64,000 bases of DNA from Primulina eburnea. Its lineage: Eukaryota > Streptophyta > Magnoliopsida > Lamiales > Gesneriaceae. The notes under the pieces are model-generated. The model did no database searches. It had not been told where the DNA came from and worked only from the letters and a program-made list of their open reading frames with translations. The number at the start of each line of letters is the position of its first letter. Within the stretch, counting starts at the first letter, position 1. Made by a program: the position numbers and the translations under genes. The DNA lies in assembly GCF_022965805.1 (NCBI RefSeq), contig NC_133103.1, forward strand, positions 30,122,329 through 30,186,328, read 5' to 3'. Below, in pieces: positions 44,494 through 45,939 of the stretch.

Positions 44494-45041
44494 ATGGGTA
44501 AAATTCTCTAAAAAAATTTGTAAATATTTTCCCTCTGTTTATGAAAATGTTCCAAGAAAAATTTATGCAGGTAGGTGTGAAAGATTGAGATTGCTAATGC
44601 AAAAATGAATTTCAGAAGATATTCGTCTTGTAATACAAGCTAAAGTCCGATTAGGATGAGAAGTTGCACAATAATTGCTCATTCGGTATTTCCCTGGATT
44701 AGGAAAAAACACTTATGCGAAAAAAACGAAGGGCCAAAAGGTTAGGGATTTGTCATAAGTGTGCAAGATGGACTTGTGACAAACGATGCAGATCTTTGGG
44801 GTGTGTTTCCAATAACAGAGAAGATAAAATTAGTTCCATTAATAATGGGCTGAGTAAGGAGTCTTTAGATAACATTTTATTGACTCTTGAGACGCATTCT
44901 AGTGGACACGTGCATATTGAACTTCTCCGTTTATGGAAACAATTCCAAGATGAGAGTCATAGTCTTGGGAATCCGACTAAAAAAGACCATGTTTGCCAAT
45001 TTATAAGAAAATTGGATGGGAAGCATATCCTCGACTCATAG
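44494..45041 (+). pseudogene. Cysteine-rich basic accessory protein (carlavirus-CRP-like), element A copy
   Basis: This is the counterpart of the intact B ORF at 34,328-34,810. The first half carries stops (for example near 44,509, 44,606 and 44,656) and an indel near 44,710. The second half is open (44,715-45,041) and includes the basic run and the same cysteine finger. Its C-terminus is about 20 residues longer than B's and ends HILDS, stop at 45,041. The retained finger in two copies shows that this gene belongs to the element family and was not acquired by one copy. Confidence 0.7.
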
Positions 45042-45194
45042 AAGGCGTTGAAGCCGTTTCTGAACGTAAAACCAGAGAAAAATTGTGAGCCACAATCACA
45101 CTACTGTTTATATGCATGTGTGTCATTATTGTTTTTACTATTTATTCTGCTTACAATTGTGACCCATAGTTTTGGCATGATAACATATTACCCC

Positions 45195-45229
45195 TATAAA
45201 ATCTCTCATCTTTCTCTCTATTTTCGCAG
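45195..45229 (+). promoter_or_regulatory. TATA-like box and 3' splice-site-like sequence before LOG
   Basis: CCCCTATAAAATCTCTC (TATAAAAT at 45,195) is followed by a pyrimidine-rich stretch ending TTTTCGCAG at 45,229, 20 nt before the LOG ATG. It could be the acceptor for a spliced subgenomic mRNA, as used for env-like genes, or part of a captured promoter and leader. Neither is shown. Confidence 0.4.
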
Positions 45230-45249
45230 ACAAAAAATAAAGTAAAAAC

Positions 45250-45939
45250 ATGGCTGGATCCTCTGCACAAACATTGAAAAATATTTGTGTATTTTGTGGT
45301 TCGAGTCCTTGAAAAAATGAAGTGTTTGTAGAAGCAGCGAATAATCTTGGAAAGATATTGGCTAAGAGAAAAATTCACTTGTTATATGGGGGAGGTAATA
45401 TTGGGTCAATGAGATCTGTTTCCACATCTGCTCATCTTGGAGGTAGTCTGGTTTTGGGTATTATTCCTACAGCTTTAGCTGAAGGAAATATTACAGGTGT
45501 TACGATTGAGGAGGAATTAAAAGTTTCTTCTATGTATGAATGAATCACCAAAATGATTGAAAATTCTAATGCTTTTATCTCACTACCAGGTGGTTTTGGT
45601 ACATTAGAAGAAACTTTTCACACTGTTTCTTGGGCACAACTTAATATCCATAATAAACCTGTGGGCTTGTTGAATATCAATAATTATTATGACAGTTTGT
45701 TGACATTTCTTGATAAAGCTGTGGAACATAATTTAATTTCAGAAAAATAACGAAGGATGCTCATCTCTGCTTCGACTGCTGACCAATTAATTGATGATTT
45801 GGAAGCTTTTGTTTATAAGCCTGATCCGAGAATAACAAAGATCAATTGGCCGCAATCAAGCAGTAAGAAAAAAAGTTGGATCATTGATACAAAAGTCGTG
45901 GATTGTTTTGCGTTTGTTTCAATTTGTTATCTTCAATAA
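45250..45939 (+). pseudogene. LOG-like: Captured LONELY GUY-like cytokinin riboside 5'-monophosphate phosphoribohydrolase
   Basis: LOG enzymes release active cytokinin bases from cytokinin nucleotides in the cytosol. A single frame of 229 codons, the usual LOG length, reads MAGSSAQTLKNICVFCGSSP, then LLYGGGNIGSM, LGIIPTALAEGNITGVTIEE, the family signature PGGFGTLEE (codons 113-121) and WAQLNIHNKPVGLLN. There are no introns, although plant LOG genes have several, so the source was processed RNA. Three in-frame stops lie at codons 21, 98 and 167. Codon 98 is where the family has its conserved active-site Arg in the MHxRK-type motif, and the signature Glu falls at 121. Despite the stops there is no frameshift over 690 bp. 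It lies in sense, after the cysteine-rich gene, in the env position of element A. B retains its last ~50 codons. Loss of function is near certain for this copy. Confidence 0.92.

What the first reader, a model, noticed from the sequence alone, without database searches (positions are those of the whole stretch)
44494..45939. An Athila-like retrotransposon family carrying a LONELY GUY (cytokinin-activating) gene
Seen: a 229-codon single frame with the LOG signature PGGFGTLEE at codons 113-121, a GGG-rich nucleotide-binding segment and family length, in sense downstream of integrase and upstream of the PPT of element A. It has no introns, and three stops but no frameshift. Known: LOG enzymes make active cytokinins; Athila elements have an env-like ORF in this position. 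Inference: a processed LOG mRNA was captured and kept as an accessory gene. B retains its C-terminus, so capture predates the A/B split. B has TCA where A has its third stop, so the ancestral frame was open there. I know of no described retroelement with a LOG gene. An element that raises cytokinin could expand the meristematic or germline cells in which it transposes.
Basis: partly seen in the sequence, partly recalled or inferred. Interest (0 to 1): 0.92.

Follow-up and report, generated by a model that had tools for sequence, protein, structure and literature searches.

The report
Jumping gene with captured cytokinin-activation gene
A decayed plant retrotransposon really carries a captured gene for a cytokinin-activating enzyme, which other plant retrotransposons are already known to do, but beside it sits a second gene resembling a plant-virus zinc-finger protein that may block gene silencing, and I found no report of that pairing.

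Summary
Window 45250-45939 (+) encodes a LONELY GUY (LOG) protein: Pfam PF03641 E=7e-34, best solved structure Arabidopsis At2g37210 E=3.9e-55, PGGFGTLEE at codons 113-121, three stops, no frameshift. It lies in sense, 3' of integrase, in an Athila-type element (A). Element B, nested inside A, keeps the LOG C-terminus at the same place.

The claim of novelty fails. LOG (YgdH) domains in Gypsy elements of Citrus and poplar are in print (PMC9289625).

Its 66-residue core matches Pfam Carla_C4 (E=1.2e-6) and Viral_NABP (8.4e-5), above both curated cut-offs; 0 of 30 shuffles hit either. It has the basic motif plus finger of carlavirus cysteine-rich proteins, which suppress silencing or act as transcription factors.

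Best reading: accessory cargo (virus-type zinc-finger protein plus cytokinin-activating enzyme), coding in the source elements, now broken in A and with LOG mostly deleted in B. Function is inferred only. No plant genome could be searched, so host, copy number and selection across copies remain open.

The parts
24322..25315 (+). 5' LTR of element A (TG...CA)
   Evidence: LTR starts and ends read from sequence; pairs with 47097-47914 and the piece ending at 59695
25322..25338 (+). primer-binding site of A, tRNA-Asp type
   Evidence: TGGCGCCGTTGCCGGGG; assignment to tRNA-Asp is recalled
25339..27872 (+). gag and following (protease position) region of A, broken
   Evidence: about 92-93% identical to B; Retrotrans_gag PF03732 found in the B copy; no protease family matched in the frames scanned
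27873..31160 (+). insertion D inside A, read as a solo LTR of the E family
   Evidence: 5-bp duplication GCATT at both sides; 69-72% to E LTRs
31365..41808 (-). element B, with both LTRs, nested inside A in opposite orientation
   Evidence: 5-bp duplication GGCAT at both sides; LTRs 31365-32850 and 40419-41808; PBS from 40412
36202..37227 (-). B reverse transcriptase-RNase H frame
   Evidence: RVT_1 and RT_RNaseH
34328..34810 (-). B: carlavirus-type cysteine-rich / nucleic-acid-binding ORF, 160 aa, open (219 codons stop to stop, 34331-34987); its last dozen or so residues are in another frame than the A copy's end
   Evidence: PF05515 23.2 bits (cut-off 23), PF01623 22.7 bits (cut-off 20.9); core segment PF01623 28.9 bits E=1.2e-6, 0 of 30 shuffles; open frame 0 of 1000 shuffles; end compared by eye
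34012..34239 (-). B: remnant of LOG C-terminus
   Evidence: 25 of 226 sites differ from A 45715-45940; rest of LOG missing in B
42500..42970 (+). A RNase H frame
   Evidence: PF17917 5.6e-37
44494..45041 (+). A: homologue of the cysteine-rich ORF, interrupted; longest open piece 44703-45038
   Evidence: 44512-45084 differs from B at 30 of 570 sites; A piece alone reaches PF05515 only at E=0.0085, below cut-off
45250..45939 (+). A: LOG (cytokinin riboside 5'-monophosphate phosphoribohydrolase-like) frame with three stops
47097..47914 (+). 3' LTR of A, first part
47915..59308 (+). element E inserted in the 3' LTR of A (gag-pol open in part)
   Evidence: 5-bp duplication GTTTA; LTRs 96.4% alike; gag, RT_RNaseH and integrase zinc-binding domains
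59309..59695 (+). 3' LTR of A, last part (begins with the duplicated GTTTA)
   Evidence: 236 sites aligned to the A 5' LTR end, 15 differences

Best explanation
A and B are two copies of one Athila-lineage LTR retrotransposon family, B inserted into A. Between integrase and the 3' LTR the family carries two sense accessory genes: (1) a ~160-residue basic zinc-finger protein of the carlavirus cysteine-rich / nucleic-acid-binding type, and (2) an intron-less LOG gene captured from a host mRNA. Shown: identity (LOG firmly, the zinc-finger type by profile) and order of the genes, presence of both in A, of (1) plus a LOG remnant in B, and their broken state. Inferred: when the source elements were active both were translated, perhaps from spliced subgenomic RNA. 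LOG would release active cytokinin from its nucleotide and favour division of the cells in which the element moves. The zinc-finger protein would act in the nucleus or on RNA to blunt silencing or to switch on growth genes, as carlavirus proteins do. Both cargoes would widen the window for transposition. B lacks most of LOG, possibly since before it inserted, so LOG would help but not be essential.
For: LOG. Zero gaps over 194 residues against a plant LOG at about 50% identity (89 of 177) is hard to reach by long neutral drift. Invariant residues are kept preferentially, 36/50 against 62/127, p=0.007. Expected stops after insertion are 0.98-1.2 and three are seen, P 0.08-0.12, so all stops may post-date insertion. 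Zinc-finger ORF; 219 open codons in DNA of 30% GC, 0 of 1000 shuffles (three forward frames). Its finger C-X2-C-X8-C-X4-C closely follows a basic KRRAKR motif; [quoted passage not shown] CRPs of the group suppress silencing, and CVB p12 is a transcription factor that causes hyperplasia (PMC12172455 and PMC3689765, passages). Family: same PBS type in both A and B; perfect 5-bp duplications around B, D and E.
Against: No expression, enzyme or silencing data. LOG in A has lost 14 of 50 otherwise invariant residues besides two invariant sites that are stops, including the lysine and alanine after the arginine whose own codon is a stop; activity before decay is therefore uncertain. B shows most of LOG missing in a younger copy. 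A-B dN/dS of the zinc-finger ORF (0.61-0.75, few changes) is not separable from neutrality, whereas gag and RT-RNase H give 0.39-0.50. The zinc-finger match sits near the cut-off for the whole protein, the A piece alone is below it, the reversed protein hit an unrelated cysteine-rich family at E=2e-4, below that family's cut-off, and the two copies end in different frames, so the true C-terminus is unknown. Only two copies could be read.
Confidence: 0.6

Rival explanations
1. LOG is an inert passenger: a host mRNA picked up by template switching, carried along by the element's own amplification and never useful to it.
For: Most of LOG is missing from the younger copy B. The LOG remnant is the most diverged of the seven regions compared between A and B, 25/226 sites against 380/5242 in gag to integrase. 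14 of 50 invariant residues are altered in A besides the two at stops.
Against: No indel over the LOG domain at about 50% protein identity to plant LOG; invariant residues retained preferentially (p=0.007); LOG-type domains recur in Gypsy elements of other plants, in two Citrus species passing a filter of five consensuses per species, as I read the text (PMC9289625).
Confidence: 0.3
2. The upstream ORF is not related to the carlavirus proteins; the resemblance is a short basic plus cysteine-rich stretch that arose by convergence, for instance from an element nucleocapsid or a host zinc finger.
For: The match covers only about 40-60 residues; whole-protein scores are 0.2 and 1.8 bits above the cut-offs; the A piece is below them; no viral contig matched, though that collection may hold few plant RNA viruses; the only solved-structure match has E=2.
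Against: Core segment E=1.2e-6 for Carla_C4 and hits to both related families, 0 of 30 shuffles with either; 0 of 10 full-length controls with either; order of basic motif and finger, and nearly the finger spacing, agree with what is in print for the genus.
Confidence: 0.3
3. The LOG frame in A is an independent processed pseudogene of the host that happened to insert there.
For: No introns, host-like protein.
Against: B carries the C-terminal remnant at the same position. I made no systematic search for a target duplication or poly(A) tail around the frame.
Confidence: 0.03

Closest known systems
Gypsy/Athila elements with a LOG (YgdH, LOGL4-like) extra ORF in Citrus and poplar (Steinbauerova et al. 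2011, recalled; PMC9289625, one section read)
   Same: Plant Gypsy-type LTR retrotransposons with a LOG-type domain; by my recall of the 2011 abstract two Athila-like elements with similarity to LOGL4
   Different: Host of this window unknown; I could not compare sequences. A neighbouring carlavirus-like ORF is not mentioned in the section I read
Carlavirus / mandarivirus cysteine-rich protein (NABP; Pfam PF01623, PF05515)
   Same: Basic motif followed by a C-X2-C-Xn-C-X4-C finger
   Different: Encoded by an LTR retrotransposon; finger loop one residue shorter than in potato virus H; N- and C-terminal parts without a significant family match
Athila env-like ORF (recalled; sense ORFs between pol and 3' LTR, abstract of PMC7264820)
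   Same: Sense ORFs between pol and the 3' LTR
   Different: No envelope family in the Pfam scans of these two ORFs; they are an enzyme and a zinc-finger protein
Orchid Gypsy elements with an AlkB-type RNA demethylase (PMC9289625)
   Same: Captured enzyme domain kept in an LTR retrotransposon lineage
   Different: Different enzyme; there activity was shown in vitro (abstract)

Membership tests
LOG / cytokinin riboside 5'-monophosphate phosphoribohydrolase | family profile match above curated cut-off | tested here: met
   PF03641 117.3 bits (cut-off 27), TIGR00730 155.3 (cut-off 96.35)
LOG / cytokinin riboside 5'-monophosphate phosphoribohydrolase | NCBIfam equivalog CtkRMPhLog cut-off | tested here: not met
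   111.2 bits, cut-off 300; I have no score of a plant LOG against this model, which is built for bacterial and archaeal annotation, for comparison
LOG / cytokinin riboside 5'-monophosphate phosphoribohydrolase | PGGxGTxEE motif and catalytic arginine (roles recalled) | tested here: inconclusive
   PGGFGTLEE present; the arginine codon is a stop in A; B lacks that part
LOG / cytokinin riboside 5'-monophosphate phosphoribohydrolase | enzyme activity | not testable with these tools
   needs an assay
Athila lineage of Ty3/gypsy | tRNA-Asp-type primer-binding site (link of this type to Athila recalled; that PBS type is mostly lineage-typical: PMC6317226, passage) | tested here: met
   for both copies
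Athila lineage of Ty3/gypsy | no archaeal-type RNase H (that domain marks the Tat clade, PMC6317226, passage) | tested here: inconclusive
   no second RNase H in the frames and pieces scanned, but not every small frame was scanned
Athila lineage of Ty3/gypsy | place in RT/RH/INT tree | not tested
   no reference sequences at hand
Athila lineage of Ty3/gypsy | Athila ORF-1 domain PF03078 (in 16% of Athila elements; so not required) | tested here: inconclusive
   not hit in the frames scanned; not every frame was scanned
Carlavirus-type cysteine-rich nucleic-acid-binding protein | profile match above curated cut-off | tested here: met
   B ORF PF05515 23.2/23, PF01623 22.7/20.9; core 28.9 bits PF01623; the A piece fails both
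Carlavirus-type cysteine-rich nucleic-acid-binding protein | basic motif plus C-X2-C-Xn-C-X4-C finger | tested here: met
   KRRAKR then C-X2-C-X8-C-X4-C; feature from PMC3689765 (passage)
Carlavirus-type cysteine-rich nucleic-acid-binding protein | common descent with viral proteins by tree or fold | tested here: inconclusive
   model of pLDDT 44 is useless; no viral sequences found
Carlavirus-type cysteine-rich nucleic-acid-binding protein | silencing suppression or transcription-factor activity | not testable with these tools
   needs an assay

The most novel reading that the evidence does not exclude
An Athila lineage assembled a two-gene host-manipulation cassette: a zinc-finger silencing suppressor or growth-inducing transcription factor taken from (or shared with) plant RNA viruses, and a host-derived cytokinin-activating enzyme. 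Together they make host cells both divide and fail to silence the element, a plant parallel to tumour-inducing T-DNA or oncogene-carrying retroviruses.
Probability: 0.25. Interest if true: 0.88.

Novelty: new variant of a known kind. Interest (0 to 1): 0.58.

Why it matters
LOG-type domains in Gypsy elements have been noted in print (PMC9289625; an earlier survey recalled); my searches listed no study of what they do. A second cargo gene that looks like a plant-virus silencing suppressor would change the picture from a stray captured gene to a cassette acting on the host, and would link RNA viruses, LTR retrotransposons and plant hormone biology. It makes a direct test possible: do elements that move well keep both genes intact?

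Tried and rejected
Rejected: 'no described retroelement with LOG'. Rejected: separate host pseudogene in A (B remnant). Rejected: my own first assumption that A and B lie side by side; the 5-bp duplication and the continuation of A on both sides show B nested in A.

Led nowhere: the genome search on the window's own genome (not completed); protein database search (switched off); viral contigs for LOG, for the zinc-finger ORF and for a degenerate motif (4 and 91 stretches matched a word pattern but none was a relative, and 0 matches for the motif); AlphaFold of the zinc-finger ORF without an alignment (pLDDT 44, so no fold search was made); NCBIfam for that ORF (nothing relevant). A global LTR alignment of A gave 124 differences in 815 sites, inflated by an unalignable end; I used local alignments instead, 57 in 703 plus 15 in 236. 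A dN/dS row for the protease region (dS 0.45, ratio 1.01) looks like a misalignment and was not used; a second one on 73 codons gave 1.31. dN/dS cannot decide selection here because most A-B divergence seems to have arisen after insertion.

Papers: PMC9289625: passages, outline with abstract, and one section whole. PMC12172455, PMC3689765, PMC6317226: passages. PMC7264820: outline with abstract and one passage. Steinbauerova 2011 not held, its abstract recalled. All other papers were seen as search listings only. That I know of no report of the virus-like ORF in a retrotransposon rests on listings (9 papers; 15 of 303 shown; 2 papers, neither opened; 5 papers, none opened).

Full report
What is there. 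The frame 45250-45939 (+) is a LOG gene without introns: PF03641 E=7e-34, TIGR00730 E=1.3e-45, and an ungapped match of 194 residues to the Arabidopsis protein At2g37210, E=3.9e-55. Identity is 89 of 177 residues to At2g37210, 81 of 177 to At5g11950, and 78 and 63 of 177 to two other LOG-like chains (5zbj and 1t35). Stops stand at codons 21, 98 and 167. Two of them fall on residues invariant in the four chains, one being the arginine of the M-H-x-R-K motif (its catalytic role is recalled).

Setting. Self-comparison of the window and the junctions give a nest. Element A (+) runs from 24322 to 59695. Into it went D (27873-31160, read as a solo LTR, duplication GCATT), B (31365-41808, minus, with both LTRs, duplication GGCAT) and E (47915-59308, inside A's 3' LTR, duplication GTTTA). 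No clear duplication was seen around A itself. A and B share the LTR (994 bp for A's 5' LTR, which lacks a stretch that B and A's 3' LTR have; 1390 and 1486 bp for B) and the primer site TGGCGCCGTT(G/T)CCGGGG. A's LTRs differ at 72 of 939 locally aligned sites. B's differ at 51 of 1387 in a global alignment, or at 55 of 1024 and 15 of 481 in overlapping local ones. A is therefore older than B, as nesting requires. Gag through integrase of A and B differ at 380 of 5242 sites (five regions), of which most can be explained by decay after the two insertions (inference).

LOG in the family. At 3.5-4.3% decay per site since A's insertion, 0.98-1.2 stops are expected in the frame and three are seen (P 0.08-0.12), so the gene may have been open at insertion. 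No indel lies in the LOG domain, but by the A-B indel rate only 1.3-1.7 would be expected after insertion (P of none 0.18-0.28), so this says little about that period. It says more about the longer time since capture: about half of the residues differ from the plant protein without one gap. Residues invariant in four LOGs are kept at 36 of 50, others at 62 of 127 (Fisher p=0.007; the three stop positions left out; where the two plant proteins differ, a match to either counted). Against full function: 14 of those 50 are lost, more than the 4-5 that I would roughly expect from decay of A alone (my estimate, no call). B's copy lost most of the gene.

The neighbour. Immediately upstream, B holds an open frame of 219 codons (160 from ATG, 34328-34810 minus). 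None of 1000 dinucleotide shuffles of the 2251-bp 3' region reaches 219 in the three forward frames (longest 148), or 160 from ATG (longest 139). It matches PF05515 Viral_NABP (23.2 bits, cut-off 23) and PF01623 Carla_C4 (22.7, cut-off 20.9). The 66-residue core alone gives Carla_C4 28.9 bits, E=1.2e-6, and Viral_NABP 23.1 bits. None of 30 shuffles of it hits either family at E up to 1; the best shuffle hit to any family is 0.035. Among ten full-length controls (one reversed, nine shuffled) none hit these families, but the reversed one hit PF01657 at E=2e-4, below its cut-off, a warning about cysteine-rich sequence. The A homologue is interrupted; its longest open piece scores E=0.0085 for PF05515 and 0.75 for PF01623, below both cut-offs. 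A and B end the frame differently, so the C-terminus is uncertain. The core has KRRAKR, then C-X2-C-X8-C-X4-C. All carlavirus CRPs are said to have a basic motif and such a finger, C-X2-C-X9-C-X4-C in potato virus H (PMC3689765, passage). In the finger block A and B differ at 4 of 108 sites, against 18 of 210 before and 10 of 225 after it, a weak sign at most. dN/dS between A and B is 0.61-0.75 here, 0.39-0.50 in gag and RT-RNase H, and 0.67 in the LOG remnant; numbers are small.

How it may work. LOG proteins release active cytokinin bases (established knowledge). Carlavirus-group CRPs suppress silencing, and one (CVB p12) is a transcription factor causing hyperplasia (PMC12172455, PMC3689765, passages). 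A retrotransposon gains from dividing, poorly silenced cells. A pyrimidine-rich tract ending in CAG lies 20 bases before the LOG start (45227-45229) and a similar one ends near 34942 upstream of the B zinc-finger ORF, so splicing could deliver each ORF; this is inference from sequence only.

What is known. PMC9289625 (section read in full) reports the YgdH domain, as in LOG proteins, in Gypsy consensuses of Citrus sinensis and C. [quoted passage not shown] 2011). The 2011 paper is not held; I recall from its abstract two Athila-like elements similar to LOGL4. So the headline of the finding is already known. I found no report of the carlavirus-like ORF in a retrotransposon in listings of open-access text, a small search.

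Limits. No plant genome or protein database answered. Host, copy number, intact copies, the LOG tree and expression are all open.

Noticed in passing
   Followed up: yes
24322-59695: Four-element nest: A interrupted by D (solo LTR), B and E, each of the three with a perfect 5-bp duplication
   Followed up: yes
47915-51159 and 56071-59308: Element E has 3.2-kb LTRs, 96.4% alike, with an internal tandem duplication of about 192 bp (49660-50051)
   Followed up: no
46017-46029 (A) and about 33935-33923 (B): A G-run (ATTGGGGGGAAAA) stands about 1 kb upstream of the 3' LTR in both A and B; it is not next to the LTR, where the sequence reads GAGGAGTG (A) or GGGGAGTG (B)
   Followed up: no
26010-26654 (+), 39293-39853 (-): Gag of A and B gives a sub-threshold match to PF17464 Pns11_12 (18.5 and 21.9 bits, cut-off 25); in B it overlaps the zinc knuckle, so probably composition
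   Followed up: no
22560-24318: Tandem repeat-like block (three overlapping pairs at 82-83%) directly before A's 5' LTR
   Followed up: no
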